A stretch of 64,000 nt of DNA from Hyaloraphidium curvatum (taxonomy: Eukaryota > Monoblepharomycota > Hyaloraphidiomycetes > Hyaloraphidiales > Hyaloraphidiaceae), in assembly GCA_025558095.1 (NCBI GenBank), contig JAIVFI010000003.1, forward strand, positions 1,090,632-1,154,631. The letters are read 5' to 3'. The notes under the pieces are model-generated. The model saw only the letters and a program-made list of their open reading frames with translations, was not told the origin of the DNA and did not search any database. The translations under genes were made by a program, and so were the position numbers. Shown here one piece after another: positions 27,048 to 39,551 of the stretch (its first letter is position 1; each line of letters opens with the position of its first letter).

Positions 27048-30000
27048 CTACGCCCCAAGAATCAGCTCCTCATCGACATTCAAACCAAAAGCGACCGGCG
27101 CGGGGGCCGGAGCGTTGACAGCGGCGGCTTCGGTGCACAGCTGAAGCCAGTGTTGGAGTTGGGCCGCGACGCCAAGAGCCCAGGCCACCGCGATCCGTTC
27201 GCGGAAGCGCCGCACAAAACGAGAGTAAAGGCCATCGAGGTCCACGGGCTGCCCATCGCGGCCGACGATCCCGGGATACTGGATGCGCCCCATCTCCGAG
27301 GAGAAGCGCGAGAAAGTGTCAGAGACAGCGCTGTACGAATCAAAAGCAATCACGATCAGAGGGTAGAAGTTGGCGTTGAAGACGAAATGGGAGTAGTCCT
27401 TCCTGGCGGCCTCGACCCGCCGTTCGACTGCGTGGCCCGGGACCGAGAAGACCAGGCCCGTGTGCAAATGGGCCATAGAGGTGAGGGTCTTGATCTCGAG
27501 CAACCACCGTTTCCGGGTTTCGCGGTGCGTGATGAGAACGTCTCCAAGGCGGCCAGCATCCGCAGGCGTGGGCGGGGTGACAGTCTCGTAGCCATGTGCA
27601 AGGAGGTTTGGCGGCATGGGGTGCACGCGGAGGAGCGGGATGGAGCGAAGCGCCGCGCGGATGGCCGCGCAAATGTCGTCGTGACCAGGTCTGAAGAGAT
27701 CCCGGCCATAGCAGCCCGAGAACGCGTGCTCCCCCGTCAGCGACATGGCCGATCGCTTGCATCCCCGCCGGCAGGGCAAGGAAAGACCAGGGTAGTCGGC
27801 CTCGTGCAGGAGCGGGAGGCAAAGCCGGAAGCGTACAAGTAAGCGGAAAAAGTAGTTGCGAATGTGGTTGGCAAGCAGCGCGGGAGAGGCAGTCAGGAAA
27901 GCCGACAGGCCGTCCTGCGCCTGGACGAGCCGCTTGCGGCGCTCCAGACCAGCGGAAGTGTCGGGTTGCAAGGCAATCAGAGCCGCGAGGCGGCGCTGGT
28001 CCTCGAGACGCGTAAGGTCGCTCTGCAGGCCGTGCCAGACCGGCTGAGCGAAGAAACTGGCGTCCGCAGGGAGCGTACGGCGGACGGGCGCGGCGCCCAC
28101 CGGTTGCCCAGCACGCGCAGCCTCGGCGTACGCTGCGGCCGTGTCATCCTCGACACGCTCAAAGGCAGGGCGGAGGGCCTCGATGATGGGAACCAGTTCC
28201 CGCACGTGCTCCACGCCCACACCCCGGGCCGAGGTTCGAAGACCAAGCATGGCGTCCAAGGGGCCCGCCGTGAGGTTGAATGAAGACAGGTAAGCCGCCG
28301 AGGCCACCTTCTCCGATGACAGAAGCCCCATCCCCGAGTAGTGCAGACCCAAGAATACCTGCTCCCGCACAGTCCGACCCTCCACCGACAGCGGATCCAG
28401 ATCCTCGGCCCGATCTCCCAGCAAGCGCAAGAAGGTGGTGAAAAGCGCGTTGTCAAGACGTCGAGCAAAGGGTTGGGTAACCGAGGGGGGGAGAATGCGG
28501 AGCCAAAACGAGAAGAGCTGGGTCACACAGAGACGGAGGAGGGAGTACAGGCCCTGGAGGGAGGGGATGTCGGCCGGCATGGCGTAGCCGAGCGCAGCGC
28601 GCTCGATTTCATCGAGAAGAGCGGCAATGGAGTCGATCTTGGCCGCGAGGAACGACTCCACATAGGCAGGGGTGCCGACCGGGGCACCGACCACCTTGAG
28701 GCCGCACGAGCGAGCGAAGTCAGGCGAGCCCGGGGCCGACGCCGTGGCATGCACCTCGGGGTCGGCCTCGTGAGGCGGGAAGCCAGCGACGCGGATGTTG
28801 TGGGCCGCACCGGCCGCGCGCACCCGCTCCAGCACGGCCGGGTCCGTCGAGAGCGAAAGCAGGTAGCTCTTGTCCGGGCGGTGGGTCATGCCGAGGGAAG
28901 CAAGGCCGTCACGCACCTCTCCCAGGACGGCCATGACCGAGTTGAGCGGCCCGACCACGGTGAGGTCGTCGAGGTACCCAAGGATGAGGCAGTCGGGGTG
29001 CCCAGAGCGGATGGGCCGCAGCATGCGGCTCATGGCGCAGGAGAAGATGGCAGACGACAGCGGGTCGCCCTGGATGTTGCCCTCGTACATGGTGATCCGG
29101 AAAAGGAGCTCCGCCGAGCGCCGGTCGCGGAAGTAGGCGTGGGAAGGGCGCGAGTAAACGAGGTTGTAGTACGGGATAAGCTGAGGCACCTGGCGGACCA
29201 CCTCGCGCGCGAAGAGGCGGCGCAGCGTATTGAAGGCGTTCCTAGAGTCGACCTTCATGACGACGTGGTCGGGGAAGGCCGCCAGCCACGCATTCACCGC
29301 GTGGGCGGTCGCCTCCGCGCCCCCGTCCACCCCGTGACCCAGGTCCTCCTGCTGTTGGAGCTTCCTCAGAAGAGCCTTGTGCCGCACGGCCAGGTACGAG
29401 CCCGCGAGCCGCGTGATGCCCTCCATAATGCCAATCGGCCGGAGCCCCCCCTCCGGCTTGAGCAGAGGGACGAGGATTTGATCCGTGAGGAGCGGCCGGA
29501 GCATGGGGGTGTCGAGTCGGCCAGTGCACACGCCGTGCACCATGGCCGCCAGCGGGCGGAGCTTCCGCCGCGTCGCGTCGTTCTCGCAGTTGTGCACGAT
29601 GAAAAGTTTGGCCATGCTGAAACCCGACATGCCGGCCCCCACGCCGTCCTTCTTCCGGCGCAACCTGGCCCAGATGTCCTCCAGGAAAGCCGCGTCCGTG
29701 TAGGCAGGGCAGGGCGCGGGCGCGTTGGGGGGCAGAGACAGCCGACACAGCGGCTCTCCCTCCCGCGGCCCCGGGTACAGCTCCTCCAGTTCCGCCTGCA
29801 GCGTGGGCGTGAAGCCAGCCGGCACGGCCTCCCCCGAGAGGGCCGCGGACGCAGCACCAGGAGCGCCCTTCAAGGCGGCAAGCACGATGGCCTTGAAGAG
29901 CTGGTAGTTGAGCGGCCGCAGCCCGTCCCGCCGCGCGCCCCGGTTGACCTGACGGGCGGCGAAGTAGTTCTGCTCGTACATGTAGTCCCCCGACATGACG

Positions 30001-30959
30001 TAGCCGCCAAAAGCAAGGTAGGCGGTGAGAGTGCGGTGCAGGTCAGTTTCCGGTGCCGCCGGGTCCTCGTAGGCCCGTTGGAAAGACTCGCTGGCCCGGA
30101 AGGCGAGCGTGCTCCAGGTGGTGGTCCGGTAGCGGTGCTTCAGCGGCTCCGGCGGCGGCGCCCCCGCGCCCCCGCCCGGCGGCGGATCAGGCCCGGGACC
30201 CCCGGGTGGACCACCGTCGCCCGGGTCGCCCGGATCACCGCCGTTGCCGTGCCCGCCAGCCGCGGCGTTGCCGCCCGGCGCGCCGTCGCCGCCTGGGGGA
30301 TCACCGCCGTCCGGGGCGGCACGCGCCGCCGCCGCCGCCGCCGCCAGCGCCGCCCGTTGCGCCTGGCCGTCCTGCGGGGCGTCGGCCGCAACCCGGGCGG
30401 CCGCAAGGGCCGCCAGCAGCGCGGGCGCGGGTGGCGAAGCACGGGGAGATGCCGACGATGCCGCCGGTGACGCCGGTCCCTCCGCGCGTCCCGTAGCAGC
30501 CGCCCGCGCGGCACGCACGCGGTCGAGGAACTCGACGAGATCGGGTGGAAGCGAAGCTAAAGAGACGCCGAGTGGCGGGTTAGCTGCGTCCGGGTTGCAC
30601 GAGGTGTGCTGTCCAGAAACACCGGCACCAGAGGCGTTTGCGGCGTAGGGACGCCGGCAACCCCCGCACCGCGCTAGCCCCATGGCGCGCAACGCATCGG
30701 CAGACAGGCGCTGCATCGCCAACCAGTGCTCCGGGCTCCGTGTGACCCGAAGATGACCGTCCCGTTTGTTTTTGTTTGGAGTTGGCTGGAAGCGGCAACC
30801 ATCAACCGGGCACGCATGGAGGCCGGGTTCAGCAGGCGCCTCCGCCATCGGCACATCGCCGTCGATGCAAGATTGGTGATGATGAGATAGAGCTCCGATG
30901 TTGGCGAAAGCTGCCGCGCAGCCGTGGCAGCTGTAAGGCAGGAGCGGCGTGCGGCTCAT
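27048..30959 (-). CDS. Non-LTR retrotransposon ORF2: zinc finger, reverse transcriptase, RLE
   Basis: 1303 aa, single exon. Residues 1-110 contain C2H2-like clusters (YSCHGCAAAFANIGALSHHH, HACPVDGCRF). A long Ala/Gly/Pro spacer follows. The reverse transcriptase domain has motif A VMKVDSRNAFNTL, motif B EGNIQGDPLSSAIFS and motif C LGYLDDLTVVG. The C-terminal part has a CCHC-type CRRGC...GEHAFSGC cluster, then the endonuclease GRLGDVLITHRETRKRWLLE with IKTL after it, supplying the D and ExK residues of the restriction-like fold. Length and order match R2-type elements. The start ATG overlaps the stop codon of the upstream ORF (ATGA). Confidence 0.9.
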   Translation of the reverse strand: MSRTPLLPYSCHGCAAAFANIGALSHHHQSCIDGDVPMAEAPAEPGLHACPVDGCRFQPTPNKNKRDGHLRVTRSPEHWLAMQRLSADALRAMGLARCGGCRRPYAANASGAGVSGQHTSCNPDAANPPLGVSLASLPPDLVEFLDRVRAARAAATGRAEGPASPAASSASPRASPPAPALLAALAAARVAADAPQDGQAQRAALAAAAAAARAAPDGGDPPGGDGAPGGNAAAGGHGNGGDPGDPGDGGPPGGPGPDPPPGGGAGAPPPEPLKHRYRTTTWSTLAFRASESFQRAYEDPAAPETDLHRTLTAYLAFGGYVMSGDYMYEQNYFAARQVNRGARRDGLRPLNYQLFKAIVLAALKGAPGAASAALSGEAVPAGFTPTLQAELEELYPGPREGEPLCRLSLPPNAPAPCPAYTDAAFLEDIWARLRRKKDGVGAGMSGFSMAKLFIVHNCENDATRRKLRPLAAMVHGVCTGRLDTPMLRPLLTDQILVPLLKPEGGLRPIGIMEGITRLAGSYLAVRHKALLRKLQQQEDLGHGVDGGAEATAHAVNAWLAAFPDHVVMKVDSRNAFNTLRRLFAREVVRQVPQLIPYYNLVYSRPSHAYFRDRRSAELLFRITMYEGNIQGDPLSSAIFSCAMSRMLRPIRSGHPDCLILGYLDDLTVVGPLNSVMAVLGEVRDGLASLGMTHRPDKSYLLSLSTDPAVLERVRAAGAAHNIRVAGFPPHEADPEVHATASAPGSPDFARSCGLKVVGAPVGTPAYVESFLAAKIDSIAALLDEIERAALGYAMPADIPSLQGLYSLLRLCVTQLFSFWLRILPPSVTQPFARRLDNALFTTFLRLLGDRAEDLDPLSVEGRTVREQVFLGLHYSGMGLLSSEKVASAAYLSSFNLTAGPLDAMLGLRTSARGVGVEHVRELVPIIEALRPAFERVEDDTAAAYAEAARAGQPVGAAPVRRTLPADASFFAQPVWHGLQSDLTRLEDQRRLAALIALQPDTSAGLERRKRLVQAQDGLSAFLTASPALLANHIRNYFFRLLVRFRLCLPLLHEADYPGLSLPCRRGCKRSAMSLTGEHAFSGCYGRDLFRPGHDDICAAIRAALRSIPLLRVHPMPPNLLAHGYETVTPPTPADAGRLGDVLITHRETRKRWLLEIKTLTSMAHLHTGLVFSVPGHAVERRVEAARKDYSHFVFNANFYPLIVIAFDSYSAVSDTFSRFSSEMGRIQYPGIVGRDGQPVDLDGLYSRFVRRFRERIAVAWALGVAAQLQHWLQLCTEAAAVNAPAPAPVAFGLNVDEELILGA

Positions 30960-31518: not shown

Positions 31519-32627
31519 ATGCCCTCCGTGGGGCCGTCCGCCGCCGTCCTGGCGGCGCGGCAGCGCGCGGACGCTGCGCGGCGCATGTTGGCCGAGGCGG
31601 AGAAGGAGCTCGCGCGGCTCGACGAGGCGGAGGAGGCCGGAGTGCCCGGGCCGCCGCTGGACCGGGCGACGCTGGAGAGGGCGCTGAGGATGGAGAATGA
31701 TATCAGGATGGGGGAGGAGGGCCAGAGGCGGTTTGCGGAGGCGGAGAGGAGGGAGGACACGGACTGGTGCGTGCACTGCTCGGACTCGACTTGCCCCCCT
31801 TTCTGACTCCCGGTTCCCCTTCGCCTTGCCCCGATTTCCTGCTTGATCTTTGCAATGTTGTTTTATTGGAACTCGCTCGCAATCGCCGCAACCCCATTTT
31901 CCGTCCTTCCAGGATGACGGAGGCCGACCTCATCCAGCGCGAGGTGCTCCGCTCGCTCGGCGTGCGCCCCGCCAACGAGGCCCGCGCCCTCGCCCAGTTC
32001 CGCGCCGCCGTCGCCGGCCCCGACGCCGATCCCGAGCTCGCCAAGATCCCCGTCTACGTGCGCTTCCAACGCGCCCGCCGCGGCACCCTCCACCCCCCGT
32101 GCTCGGCCCCCGACGTCGCCCTGTACACCCTCGAAGGCACCGCCACCACCCTCCTGGCCCAGCAGCGCCCCGGCATCCCCCTCGTCGTCGTCGCCGGCAG
32201 CCACTCCTGACCTCCGTTCCGCGGGCTCGTCCCCGCCCTGCACTCGCTGCGGGACGAGCTCGCGGGAAGGGCAGACCTGCTCGCCGTGTACATCCGCGAG
32301 GCGCACGCGAGCGACGAGTGGCCCATCCGCAGCGCGCGGTTCGCGCGGGACGGGAAGCCCGTCGAGGTGCGAGCGCACGTGAGCTTGAACGACAGGGCGA
32401 GGGCGGCGGCGGGGTTCAGGGACGCGTTCGGGTTCCGCGTGCCGATCCTGCTCGATGGGATGGACGACGCGTTCGACGCCGCCTACGCGCCCTGGCCCAT
32501 CAGGTTCTTCGTGCTGCAGGACGGGCGCGCCGAGTTCGTGTCGGAGCCCGTGGGGGCGGAGATCGACGTGGCCACGCTGGGGTGCTGGCTGCGCGAGAGG
32601 CTCGGGGAGAGCGGACAGGTGGCGTGA
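31519..32627 (+). CDS. Iodothyronine deiodinase-like selenoprotein
   Basis: Exons 31519-31766 and 31913-32627, 320 residues if the TGA at 32208-32210 is read as selenocysteine. Exon 1 encodes a charged helical, coiled-coil-like region. Exon 2 encodes a thioredoxin-fold domain: SAPDVALYTLEG, PLVVVAGSHS-Sec-PPFRGLVP, AVYIREAHASDEW, PILLDGMDDAFDAAYAPW and FFVLQDGRAEFV. These are deiodinase-family landmarks (GSxT-Sec-PPF, YIEEAHxSDGW, MDN/DxxxxAY), and the TGA is exactly at the catalytic Sec position. The frame stays open for 138 codons afterwards, and a SECIS-like hairpin follows at 32686. Homologues in microbes are probably thiol/selenol redox enzymes rather than thyroid enzymes; the substrate is unknown. 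If TGA stops translation, the product would lack its active site. Confidence 0.88.
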
Positions 32628-32675: not shown

Positions 32676-32745
32676 TTCGAGCGCCATGACGGGGCGGCCG
32701 GCAAACCTCATCCGAGGATGGCCGCCCCTGAGGTTTGCGCGCGGA
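32676..32745 (+). promoter_or_regulatory. SECIS element, type II
   Basis: In the 3' UTR, ATGA (32686-32689) is followed by 13 nt and then AAA (32703-32705). G32691-C32699 pairs perfectly with G32720-C32728. A CCTC/GAGG mini-stem caps the apical loop. TGAG (32729-32732) provides the GA side of the non-Watson-Crick quartet. This matches the eukaryotic consensus ATGA-N10-13-AA-...-NGAN. It begins about 60 nt after the stop, at a usable distance from the Sec codon. Helix I below the quartet is weak. Confidence 0.88.
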
Positions 32746-33012: not shown

Positions 33013-35173
33013 ATGCACGTTCGCCGGCGACTATTCTGCCTCTTTCGCGATGCCGCGGTCTTTCCAGGGCAAGTGCCTCGTGCGCCCGGGCCCGGGTCTC
33101 ATTCCTGGTTGCCGTGTGCACGCGCCGCCGGGTCACGGACGGAGGAACGCGCCTGCGGCGGCCGCGTGCCGCCTCTTCCGGGTGTTGCCTCTCTCGTACC
33201 GAAACGGTGCTTTTCTTCCAATATGCCGCATGGGAGCGACCCGAAGGAACGGCTGCTGAACGTCCTCGAGAGCGCATCGAGCGGCCGGATCGCGCCTAGG
33301 CAGGCTGCGGACAGGGTCTGGGAGGCCTATACCGCGCTCGGAACCGCCCGCGGACTCGAGAGCTACCTCGTTGCGGGCGTGGCACATCATTTGGCCGCCC
33401 ATGCGGTCCAGGTGCAGGCCAGCCTCCGCGGGAAGGGCAGGGCCGGAAACCGGGACCACGCCGATGCCTCGCTGGACCAGGCGGCGGAACGGATGGTTCG
33501 GCTTCTCGCGGACGCCACCGAAGCAGGCATTGCCATCTCGTCGTCTGCCGTGACGAGATTCGTCCAGCTTAAGGATCGCCACCTGGGGTAGGTCGCGGAA
33601 GGGCAGGCTACTCTCGGGCTTTCTGAAGATCCTTGTGCCCAGGTCGTACGCGGAGTGCCGGAAGGTCGTCGACTTTCTGCGGTTGAAGTGCCGTGTCACG
33701 CTGAACCATCTCATGTTAAGCGCGTTGCTGCGCAACGTCGCCCACCGCGGCAACTACACCGCGTTCCTCCGGCTCCTGTACGAGGAGCTGACGGCCAGCC
33801 CCGGCATCTCCATCGACGGGTTCATAATCAATCTTTTTCTCAAGGCGGTCGTCGAGGCGTCACCCCTGACGTCGGAGGATTTGGCAGAGTATGCGCGCCG
33901 ACAGACCTGCGTGGCGGACCTCGCAATCCCGCTGTGGGCTCTGACGAAGAACGAGCCCTTCGCTCGGACTAGAAGCCTTGATCCTCGCGATCTGGATGCT
34001 TTGGAGCTGGCTCCAGACCCTGCTTCGGCTCTTCGGGAAGCAATCGTGAGCGGCCCGGCGCCCAGCATCCTCGACCTCTGCCGCCCGACGATACCGGCTG
34101 GATCCACGACACCGGTGCGGAAGATTGTGCAGCTTCTGTCGCTCGCGGCCGCTGGCTTTCGGCAGGGTCGGGAGGACGTGCTGGACGGCCACGTCGTCGT
34201 GGCGGCTGTCGAAGCCTTCTGCGCTTGGAAGCACCCCAGGTGCGCACTGGCCACCTCGGAATTCTTCACAATGGCGCCATTTCCTATTGCGCCCCGTCCC
34301 CAGACGTTCAACATCTTGCTTGCCGATGCCTGCGATCGCCGGGACGCCGTTTCGGGCGACGCGATCCTCGAGCGCATTCGGCAGGTGGGCTTGAAGCCGG
34401 ATCTGGAGTTGTTCAATACCATGATCCTTTTCTACGGGCGCACGGGGAGGCTCAAGCTTGCAAAGGAGACCCTGAAGGAGATGGTCACCGCAGGCTATAA
34501 GCCCAGCCCGCTGACCGGGATGGCGGTGCTGGAGGGCATTCTCGGGCCAAAGGCGACGGTCGAGGACGTGGAGCGCGCAATGGACGCGCTCACATCGGTG
34601 GGTATCGACGTGGATGCGCCCAACTGGAACAAGGCTCTCCGGCACTTCGCGCAGCAGCGGGATCTGCAAGGGCTCATGCGGGTTTACGGGTTGATGACGG
34701 TGCAGCCAAGTCCCGTAACGGTGTCCTTGGTGGCAAAGGCGCTCGCGGATCTTGGGGATACGGGCCAGATGATCGACTTCCTGATCAGCGTTCCACCGCA
34801 TCTGGTCGGAAGATCCGCAACTTGGAGCGCCGCCATAACAGCCTTCGCAAGGCGGTGGACATCTTCCGGGGACTCGATTTGTCGGGACGCTGCCTTTGCT
34901 CTCTCGTGTGCCGCGGTGGACCACACACCACCGAGCAAGGAATCACTGCCGGCATCAGTCCGCGAGCTACCTTTCGTTGGCATGCGCCCGCCCGTCCCAG
35001 AATTCGGCCTCATGCTGGTCATTTTTGAGCTTGCCACGCGGCTTCGTGGGGAGCAGCTGCGAATCATCACAGACAAGGGGAGGGCGTACCTGCAACGGAA
35101 TGGGCATGCGCTGCCGGACGGTGCGGATGCACGGACAATGCTCGCGAGGCTTAGGCGGTCTCTATTGCGCTGA
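33013..35173 (+). CDS. PPR family copy 4, intact mitochondrial-type PPR protein
   Basis: Exons 33013-33587 and 33643-35173, 701 aa. An Arg-rich presequence lacking acidic runs ends VPKRCFSS, resembling mitochondrial processing sites. A conserved helical domain (GRIAPRQAADRVWEAYTALG to DRHLG) fills the rest of exon 1. Exon 2 begins SYAECRKVVDFL, with a middle region up to about residue 400. From about 410 to 600 lie five or six PPR-like 31-36-residue repeats, including TFNILLADACDRRDA, then LELFNTMILFYGRTGRLK with a GYKP end. The C-terminal block carries LATRLRGEQLRIITDKGRAY. PPR proteins bind organellar RNA, so a role in mitochondrial RNA processing or translation is likely. This copy and copy 5 are the only full-length, uninterrupted members here. 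Confidence 0.85.
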
Positions 35174-37341: not shown

Positions 37342-39551
37342 TCAGTAACGACCGACCCCGCCCGCCTTTTTCCCCACCCTTGGTCCACTCCTCCTTCCCG
37401 CCTCGGCCTGGAGTATTGCATGCATCGCCCTCGCGTCCGCGCCACCCCAAACCGCGTATCCGTTCCGAACCAGATAGGCCCGCCCTTTGTCCGTCAGCAT
37501 CTGCAGCTGCTCCCCCTGTAGCCGCGTGGCCAGATCGAATATCACCAGCGTGAGCCCCGCTTCAGGGACGGGCGGGCGCATGTCCACGAAAGGTAGCTCG
37601 CGGAGGGCTGTCGGCAGGGATTCCTTGGTGAGTTGTGCGTGGTCCAGCGCCGCACATGACAGGGCGAAGGCGGCGTCCCGAAAAACAAAGTCCCCGGACG
37701 ACGCCCACTCCCTGGCGAATGATGCGATGGCAGTGCTCCAGGTTGCGGATATCCCGATCAAATGCGGCGGAACGCTCTTCAGGAAGTCGATCATCTGGCT
37801 CGTGCCCCCAAGATCGGCGAGCGCCTTTGCCATCAACGACACGGTCACCTCGTTTGGTGGCACGGTCATCGACCCGTAAACCCGCATGAGCCCTTGCAGA
37901 TCCTGTTGCTGTGCAAAACAGCGCAGCGCTTTCGTCCAGTGGTGCACGTCCACGTCGATGCCTACCGAGGCAAGCACCTTCATGGCGTGCCCCACGTCCT
38001 CGACCGTCGCGTTCGGCCCGAGGATGCCCTCCAGCACCGCCATCCCGGTCACCGCGTTGGGCTTGTAGCCTGCGGCGACCATCTCCTTCAGGGTCTCCTT
38101 TCCCAGCTCGAGCCCCCCCGTGCGCCCGTAGAAAAGGATCATGGTAGTGAACAACTCCAGATTCGGCTTCACGCCCAGCTGCCGCATGCGCTTGAGGATC
38201 GCCTCGCCCGAAACAGCGTCCCGGCGATCGCAGGCGTCGGTAAGCAAGACGTTGAATGTGTCGGGACGGGGCGGAATCGGAAACGGCGCGGTTGAGAAGA
38301 GTTCCGAGGTGGCCAGGGCGCACCTGGGGTGCTTCCAAGCGCAGAAGGCTTCGACAGCCCCAGTGACGACGTGGCCGTCCAGCACGTCCTCCCGACCCTG
38401 CCGAAAGCCAGCGGCAGCGAGCGACAGAAGCTGCACAATCTTCCGCACCGGTGTCGTGGATCCAGCTGGCATCGCCGGGCGGCAGAGTTCGCGAATGTCC
38501 GGCGCCGGGCCACTCATGATTGCTTCCCGAAGAGCCGAAGCCGGGTCTGGAGCCGATTCCGAAGCATCCAGATCGCGAGGATCAAGGATCGCAGTCCGGA
38601 CGACGCGCTGGTCCTTCGTCACAGCCCAGAGCGGGATCGCGAGGTCGGCCACGCTGCCCTGTCGGCGCGGATACTCCGCCAGATCCTCCGACGTCAGGGG
38701 CGAAGCTTTAGCGACGGCAGCCAGATAGAGGTTGAGGATGTACGAGTGCACAACTAGGTCGGGATTGGCCGTCAGCTCTTCGTGGAGGAGCTTGAGGAAA
38801 GCCGTGTAGTTGCCGCGGTGCGCCACGTTGCGCAGCAACGCGCTCAACAGGTGCTTGTTCAGCGCGACGCGGCACCTCAACCGCAGAAAGTCGACCACCT
38901 TCCGGCATTCCGCGTACGACCTGCGGACACGGAACGTCAGAGGTCCTCGCTCCGAGGTGCGCGGGCGCTCGCGACTCACCCCAGGTGGCGATCCTTCAGC
39001 TGGACGAATCTGGTCACGGCGGGCGGCGAAATGTCGATGCCAGCTTCGGTAGCATCCGCGAAAAGCTGAACCATCCGCTCCGCCGCCTGGTCCAGCGAGG
39101 CCCAGGCGCGTTCCCGGTGCCCTGTCCTGCCCTTGCCCCGCAACCCGGCCTGCTGCTCAACCGCATGGGATGCCAAATGATGTGCCACACCCGCAACGAG
39201 GTAGCTGTCGAGTCCGCGGGCGGTTCCGAGCGCGGTATAGGCCTCCCAGACCCTGTCCGCGGCCTGGTGCGGAGGGATCCGCCCGTTCTTCGCGATCTGC
39301 AGGACCTCTCTCAACCGTCCTAGGGGATCGCTCCCTCGAGAAACACCGGAAGAGAAGCACCGCGTCGAGAGGAGGGCCGGGGACGAGGCCAGGGGCGGCA
39401 CGCGAGGGCGGACGCGTTCCGCCTTCCGTGACCAGGCGGCGCGTGCAGACGGCGCCCAGGCAGGAAGTCCGGGCTCGGTCGCCAGAGCCACATGCCCTCG
39501 AACCGTCAAGGGATAGTTCAAGAGGCGGAATAGACGCCGGTGGCCTTGCAT
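37342..39551 (-). CDS. PPR family copy 5, intact mitochondrial-type PPR protein
   Basis: Exons 39551-38980 and 38920-37342 give 716 aa, in the same two-exon arrangement and phase as copy 4. The presequence starts MQGHRRLFRLLNYPL and ends LSTRCFSSGV. The conserved domain ends DRHLG at the intron, and exon 2 resumes SYAECRKVVDFLRLRC. The PPR array includes TFNVLLTDACDRRDA and LELFTTMILFYGRTGGLELG. The C-terminus extends past the usual end with a basic tail (GPRVGKKAGGVGRY). The intron is GTGAGT...CGCAG. No stop or frameshift was found. Predicted mitochondrial RNA-binding protein. Confidence 0.85.

What the first reader, a model, noticed from the sequence alone, without database searches (positions are those of the whole stretch)
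31519..32627. In-frame TGA at the catalytic selenocysteine position of a fungal deiodinase-like gene
Reading the TGA at 32208-32210 as Sec gives SHS-Sec-PPFRG. That is the deiodinase active-site signature, embedded in an otherwise uninterrupted thioredoxin fold, with family landmarks on both sides (PLVVVAG before; YIREAHASDEW and PILLDGMDD after). Selenocysteine was lost in Dikarya and is known only in some early-branching fungi, so this is a rare selenoprotein and a lineage clue. An annotation pipeline would truncate the gene at the TGA or split it.
Basis: partly seen in the sequence, partly recalled or inferred. Interest (0 to 1): 0.95.

Follow-up and report, generated by a model that had tools for sequence, protein, structure and literature searches.

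The report
Fungal deiodinase-like selenoprotein gene
An early-branching fungus carries a gene related to the vertebrate thyroid-hormone deiodinases whose in-frame UGA very probably encodes selenocysteine, and the public annotation lost that catalytic codon by calling it part of an intron.

The parts
31519..31766 (+). exon 1: N-terminal extension, residues 1-82 and two bases of codon 83; no membrane-anchor-like stretch
   Evidence: frame-keeping splices; same junction in the deposited protein P0004; hydropathy
31767..31912 (+). intron, 146 nt, GTGCGT...TTCCAG
31913..32627 (+). exon 2: T4_deiodinase (PF00837) domain, ending in TGA stop 32625-32627
   Evidence: 83.7 bits read through; fold
32208..32210 (+). 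TGA, codon 182, read as selenocysteine
   Evidence: Sec/Cys column 69 TGA, 9 TGC, 2 TGT of 80
32190..32258 (+). 69-nt stretch called an intron in the deposited protein DFJ74DRAFT_764160; it holds the TGA and the catalytic motif
32679..32742 (+). SECIS element, type II shape, AUGA at 32686-32689, 58 nt past the stop
   Evidence: Rfam SECIS_1 32.8 bits, E 8.3e-4, just under the gathering score of 35; fold z -3.43; position

Best explanation
A nuclear gene of Hyaloraphidium curvatum for a soluble, selenocysteine-containing deiodinase-like protein (T4_deiodinase family). A eukaryotic SECIS hairpin in the 3' UTR recruits SBP2 and EFSec with Sec-tRNA(Sec), so that the UGA at codon 182 is read as Sec. 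The Sec selenolate sits at the start of the first helix of a thioredoxin/peroxiredoxin-like fold, beside residues that match the proton relay of mammalian deiodinases (Ser179, Ser181, Tyr209, Glu212, His214, His238). It attacks a soft electrophile: carbon-bound iodine or another halogen, or a peroxide. An external thiol regenerates the oxidised Sec, because the protein has neither the cysteine two residues before Sec nor the distal deiodinase cysteine (its only cysteines are 146 and 307). Shown by computation: gene, motif, fold, SECIS, machinery, Sec/Cys column. Inferred: Sec insertion itself (I put it at about 0.93), the reaction class and the reductant (about 0.5).
Against: The SECIS scores 32.8 bits, under Rfam's gathering score of 35; the only match over it in the genome has no recognisable gene. 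No transcript, proteome or selenium data. PSTK rests on one exon at 22.7 bits, far under the model's cut-off of 382. Substrate and reductant are unknown; helper cysteines of DIO1/DIO3 are absent.
Confidence: 0.85

Rival explanations
1. The deposited annotation is right: 32190-32258 is a true 69-nt intron and the protein has no Sec.
For: The stretch starts GT, ends AG and keeps the frame; a gene model with it is in the database.
Against: It removes the catalytic motif that 80 of 80 prokaryotic relatives examined keep and lowers the family score by 31 bits; its donor GTCGCC differs from the GTGCGT of this gene's intron and of both SelH introns; it leaves the SECIS and the Sec machinery unexplained.
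Confidence: 0.04
2. A Cys-type deiodinase-like gene that became a pseudogene, or a sequencing error, with a chance TGA.
For: No expression or population data were available.
Against: The stop falls exactly on the Sec/Cys column; no other stop or frameshift, third-position GC 0.96 after it; a SECIS follows; SPS2, SelH, SelK and SelW in the same genome show the same pairing of TGA and SECIS-like element.
Confidence: 0.02
3. Sec is inserted, but the protein works as a peroxiredoxin-like peroxidase and not as a dehalogenase.
For: After the two DIOs the fold comparison lists thiol peroxidases, peroxiredoxins and thiol-disulfide reductases; bacterial deiodinase-like proteins were suggested to have a redox function (PMC1088965, passages); thyroid hormone is not expected in a fungus (general knowledge).
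Against: Z to DIO3 and DIO2 is 8 to 9 units above the best peroxidase; DIO proton-relay residues are kept, including His238, which is His in 5 of 49 rows and Pro in 39.
Confidence: 0.45
4. TGA is reassigned to an amino acid throughout this genome.
For: An in-frame TGA is read in several genes.
Against: This gene and SelH end in TGA with a SECIS-like element right after, so TGA is also a stop; the tRNA found is tRNA-Sec.
Confidence: 0.01

Closest known systems
Vertebrate iodothyronine deiodinases DIO1-3 (PF00837; PDB 4tr3, 9h48)
   Same: Sec at the same place in xSxUPPF, YIxEAHxSDxW and AHxxxxDR motifs, thioredoxin fold with the DIO-type extension, proton-relay residues
   Different: No membrane-anchor-like stretch, no proximal or distal helper cysteine, different N-terminal region; falls outside the DIO branch in the tree of the shared part; thyroid-hormone activity unlikely and untested
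Microbial-eukaryote deiodinase-like proteins (MMETSP, EukProt and a diatom; Dictyostelium in PMC2375036, passages)
   Same: Shares EAHAxDEWP and groups with them (97/96, 23 rows); like them most database copies are gene calls that start after the Sec site (biased query)
   Different: First one I know of in a fungus; Dictyostelium sequence itself was not compared
Bacterial deiodinase-like selenoproteins (PMC1088965, PMC9312934, PMC13188914; passages)
   Same: Same domain, TGA or Cys at the same codon in 80 of 80 loci examined
   Different: Separate branch; here a 3' UTR eukaryotic SECIS and an intron
Sec-using early-branching fungi (Mariotti et al. 2019; seen only as quoted)
   Same: Sec machinery and SelH in a fungus outside Dikarya; Gonapodya prolifera is one of the species and, from memory, belongs to the same phylum
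   Different: H. curvatum is not among the six of nine species that names. From memory, that paper says most fungal selenoproteins lack consensus SECIS elements; here they are recognisable. Whether it reports a deiodinase-like gene could not be checked

Membership tests
Eukaryotic selenoprotein | in-frame UGA with conserved coding sequence on both sides | tested here: met
Eukaryotic selenoprotein | Sec/Cys exchange at the UGA position among homologues | tested here: met
   69 TGA, 9 TGC, 2 TGT of 80; P0005 (Ala) and P0124 (Trp) in the protein set do not fit
Eukaryotic selenoprotein | SECIS element in the 3' UTR | tested here: met
   32679-32742, 32.8 bits against a gathering score of 35, E 8.3e-4, z -3.43, canonical AUGA/AAAC/UGA
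Eukaryotic selenoprotein | Sec machinery in the genome | tested here: met
   tRNA-Sec, SepSecS, SPS2, EFSec, SBP2; PSTK probable only
Eukaryotic selenoprotein | selenium in the protein | not testable with these tools
   needs 75Se labelling or mass spectrometry
T4_deiodinase family (PF00837) | family profile over the curated cut-off | tested here: met
   83.7 bits, cut-off 27
T4_deiodinase family (PF00837) | thioredoxin fold of the deiodinase type | tested here: met
Vertebrate-type DIO1/2/3 enzyme | N-terminal membrane anchor | tested here: not met
   highest 19-residue hydropathy in residues 1-150 is 0.47 and in the whole protein 1.11
Vertebrate-type DIO1/2/3 enzyme | distal cysteine after Sec (all DIOs) and proximal cysteine (DIO1, DIO3) | tested here: not met
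   Cys/Sec only at 146, 182, 307; residue 180 is His; requirement from PMC9141512, passages
Vertebrate-type DIO1/2/3 enzyme | groups with vertebrate DIOs in a tree | tested here: inconclusive
   separate (97/96); in the tree of longer sequences a joint clade is not rejected, p-AU 0.257
Vertebrate-type DIO1/2/3 enzyme | deiodinates iodothyronines | not testable with these tools
   needs purified protein

The most novel reading that the evidence does not exclude
Hyaloraphidium curvatum keeps an ancestral, canonical-SECIS selenoproteome (at least the deiodinase-like protein, SPS2, SelH, SelK and SelW), including the first Sec deiodinase-family enzyme of the fungal kingdom, which works without the usual helper cysteines. 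The altered SECIS signals that I recall for other Sec-using fungi would then be derived within fungi, and a deiodinase-type selenoenzyme would have a hormone-independent job (dehalogenation or peroxide removal) in a free-living opisthokont.
Probability: 0.55. Interest if true: 0.72.

Novelty: new member of a known kind. Interest (0 to 1): 0.62.

Why it matters
Fungi were long held to lack selenocysteine, and a 2021 survey of 7.15 million annotated fungal proteins found none (PMC7988114, passages). This locus shows one way that happens: the gene model made an intron out of the Sec codon and lost the active site with it. The genome offers an early-branching fungus with a complete or nearly complete Sec pathway and several recognisable SECIS elements, so retention and loss of Sec in fungi become testable. 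It also places a deiodinase-family selenoenzyme in a lineage where thyroid hormone is not expected, which bears on what deiodinases did before hormones.

Tried and rejected
Rejected as EFSec: all 17 TIGR00475 (selB) matches that I looked at. L016 (C3:473603) I read as IF-2 and C3:894652/895031 as eIF2-gamma, both by eye; L017 (C46) scores best as EF-Tu, L018 (C25) and L019 (C7) as EF-1-alpha, L021 (C1:414672) as IF-2, and L020 (C5) as EF-1-alpha-like; C17, C22, C11, C33 and C10 I read by eye as other translational GTPases. EFSec was then found with PF21208, an accession recalled from memory (over the cut-off in 0 of 14 control genomes). Rejected as SPS: C31 (343-aa frame, read by eye as ThiL) and C9 (purM). 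L005, the C6 match to SepSecS, is a decarboxylase-like protein. The SepSecS profile itself also rings over its cut-off in 3 of 14 control prokaryotes, one of them Bacillus subtilis, so the name rests on the strength of the C8 match.

Led nowhere: the gene before the best SECIS_1 match, C30:527668-527729 minus. The C41 SelW-like gene has no Pfam match on the piece tested and its TGA context lacks a CxxU, so it is tentative. SelK and SelH fell under their Pfam cut-offs on the pieces tested (19.2 of 23.3 and 17.9 of 22.6 bits); their names rest on motifs from memory and on the SECIS hits after them. The descriptor missed the elements of SelK, the C43 SelW and the C30 orphan; an earlier looser one hit three of the six genes scanned (this gene, SPS2, SelH). 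Rfam at E 10 did not report those of SPS2 and the C43 SelW. The elements are not uniform: SelH shows no mini-stem, and the 3' UGA is CGA in SelK and the C30 element. The descriptors were written after the first elements had been seen. Genome-wide RF00031 gave 5 matches, 4 of them after frames that I read as selenoproteins; the one over the gathering score is the orphan.

The 116 of 120 (122 proteins examined, two without the motif, self P0004 left out) that start after the Sec site come from three searches, the largest with a query alignment in which three of four rows do not cover the site themselves, so the share is biased. The 80 loci are the best 80 of 358. The tree used 44 of these 80, that 26 of 80 and 22 of the 122 database proteins; of its 23-row group only eight rows (the fungus and seven with MMETSP, EukProt or UniRef labels) have a known eukaryotic source. 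In the tree the group nearest to the fungal set is bacterial (98/95), which differs.

Not in print, as far as searched: Hyaloraphidium with selenocysteine, Hyaloraphidium with selenoprotein, and SECIS with 'fungal selenoproteins' gave 0 papers each in the open library. Mariotti et al. 2019 is not held; what I say of it comes from quotations or, where marked, memory.

Full report
WHAT IS THERE. The + strand of the window holds a two-exon gene: exon 1 31519-31766, intron 31767-31912 (GTGCGT...TTCCAG), exon 2 31913-32627. It encodes 320 residues with one in-frame TGA before the stop, codon 182 (32208-32210), and ends at TGA 32625-32627. Exon 2 read through is a T4_deiodinase domain (PF00837, 83.7 bits, cut-off 27). 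It is the one match to that family that the search of the 31.9-Mb genome returned, with one TGA inside the match; none of 14 control prokaryote genomes rings.

WHOSE GENOME. The best database protein, P0004, is 'hypothetical protein DFJ74DRAFT_764160 [Hyaloraphidium curvatum]' on a contig of 1,154,631 bases, the length of the contig C3 that holds the window. NCBI places the species in Monoblepharomycota, Fungi.

HOW THE ANNOTATION LOST IT. P0004 has 297 aa. Its residues map to 31519-31767, 31914-32189 and 32259-32624 (codon 83 is split by the intron), so 32190-32258 was treated as an intron. That 69-nt stretch starts GT, ends AG, keeps the frame and contains the TGA with its motif. The deposited protein scores 52.4 bits against the family, the read-through exon 83.7.

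THE CODON IS A SEC/CYS COLUMN. A scan of one genome per prokaryotic species with a pattern that lies downstream of the site (EAH[AP][SVT]D[EG]W) gave 358 confirmed relatives; the best 80 were kept. At the codon aligned with the fungal TGA 69 of 80 have TGA, 9 TGC, 2 TGT and none anything else. In the protein databases 116 of 120 relatives that show the motif (122 examined) are gene calls that begin after the site, as expected if callers stop at the TGA; the largest of the searches behind this was biased towards such calls. The four that reach over the site have Cys (P0007, P0035), Trp (P0124) and, in P0005, Ala within letters that look unrelated.

THE SECIS. Rfam finds SECIS_1 at 32679-32742 (32.8 bits, E 8.3e-4 in a 4.3-kb search; gathering score 35). 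Its AUGA begins at 32686, 58 nt past the stop. The fold has helix I, an internal loop with AUGA and UGA, a ten-pair helix II, an AAAC bulge and a four-pair mini-stem, the type II shape: -43.3 kcal/mol, z -3.43, 0 of 200 shuffles as stable. Over the whole genome RF00031 gave 5 matches at E up to 10; this one ranks second, and no control genome of 14 has one over the cut-off. A strict descriptor hits the two strands of the window once, here. In 282,042 bases (both strands summed) of other own-genome loci, chosen mostly around Sec genes and GTPase candidates, it hits three times, each after a selenoprotein stop: SelW-like C41 (21 nt), SelH (59 nt), SPS2 (54 nt). It was written after the first elements had been seen and misses others (see Tried and rejected).

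THE MACHINERY. tRNA-Sec: 78.2 bits, gathering score 47, UCA in the anticodon loop. SepSecS: three pieces on C8, best 7.2e-58. SPS at C2:991472-991744 minus: selD profile 73.1 bits on a fragment, nearest solved relatives selenide water dikinase 1; its frame reads LKG-U-GCKV, so SPS2 itself has the TGA. EFSec: domain III in two exons on C1, 54.5 and 28.8 bits, cut-off 27; the first matches only solved EFSec chains at E up to 1. SBP2: an L7Ae exon on C31, 27.5 bits, whose best solved match is SBP2 at 3.6e-6, the next 0.089. PSTK: one exon, 22.7 bits, with DDNMYYSSMR and LETCLERN, which I recognise from memory; probable only.

OTHER SELENOPROTEINS. Frames upstream of SECIS hits read as SelH (C-N-S-U across an intron), SelK (C-terminal GGGSUGR) and a tentative SelW-like protein. 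A second SelW (YCGAU) is on C43 (Rdx 50.6 bits). The seven elements folded share AUGA, a long helix II and an A-rich apical part, with the exceptions listed under Tried and rejected. The names SelH and SelK rest mainly on motifs from memory.

DESCENT. On 51 rows cut to the shared part, the fungal protein groups with P0005 and P0013 (100/98), inside a 23-row group (97/96) that holds the seven rows labelled MMETSP, EukProt or UniRef diatom and 15 unlabelled database rows, apart from 26 bacterial rows and the mouse DIOs. In a tree of longer sequences with fewer such rows the next neighbours are bacterial (98/95), and a joint clade with the DIOs is not rejected (p-AU 0.257). Descent within eukaryotes is the simplest reading; it is not proved.

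WHAT IS KNOWN. Sec use in nine early-branching fungi was reported in 2019 (quoted in passages; the paper itself is not held). Deiodinase-like selenoproteins are known in Dictyostelium (PMC2375036, passages) and bacteria (PMC1088965, passages; PMC9312934 and PMC13188914, passages). Searches for Hyaloraphidium with selenocysteine or selenoprotein gave 0 papers in the open library. From memory, the 2019 abstract says that most fungal selenoproteins lack consensus SECIS elements; if so, H. curvatum is the contrast case.

VERDICT. A deiodinase-like selenoprotein gene, a new member of a known kind in an unexpected host, with a public record that lost its active site. Selenium incorporation, substrate and reductant remain to be shown at the bench.

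Noticed in passing
G000 C30:527668-527729 minus (L007, L022): The best SECIS_1 match of the genome (36.2 bits, over the gathering score) has no recognisable selenoprotein frame in the 4 kb upstream: an unidentified selenoprotein or a GC-rich chance hairpin.
   Followed up: partly
L057-L136 (80 prokaryotic loci): 69 of the best 80 prokaryotic deiodinase-like genes, largely from Acidobacteria, Planctomycetota and Verrucomicrobia genomes, have TGA at the catalytic codon, so the family looks more common as a selenoprotein than a handful of reported cases suggests.
   Followed up: partly
window 27051-30959 minus: A 1303-aa open frame with a reverse transcriptase domain (39.7 bits, cut-off 29.6) lies 560 bases upstream of the gene on the other strand, a retroelement neighbour.
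   Followed up: no
window 33635-35170 plus and 37345-38979 minus: Two open frames with pentatricopeptide (PPR) repeats downstream of the gene, on opposite strands.
   Followed up: no
G000 C31:77557-77886 and C31:90110-90439 plus (L012, L013): Two AIRS matches with the same score (105.7 bits) and frame length (343 aa) 12.5 kb apart; the frame read in L027 looks like ThiL by eye: a recent duplication or an assembly repeat.
   Followed up: no
P0124 (database protein): A deiodinase-like relative with Trp at the Sec site (AGSYSWPPL); perhaps a gene caller read TGA as Trp. Its DNA was not seen.
   Followed up: no
G000 C20:442984-443287 plus (L033, L035, L037): A third Rdx-family gene that has Cys, not Sec, in its motif (YCPKC), beside the TGA-bearing SelW of C43.
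   Followed up: no
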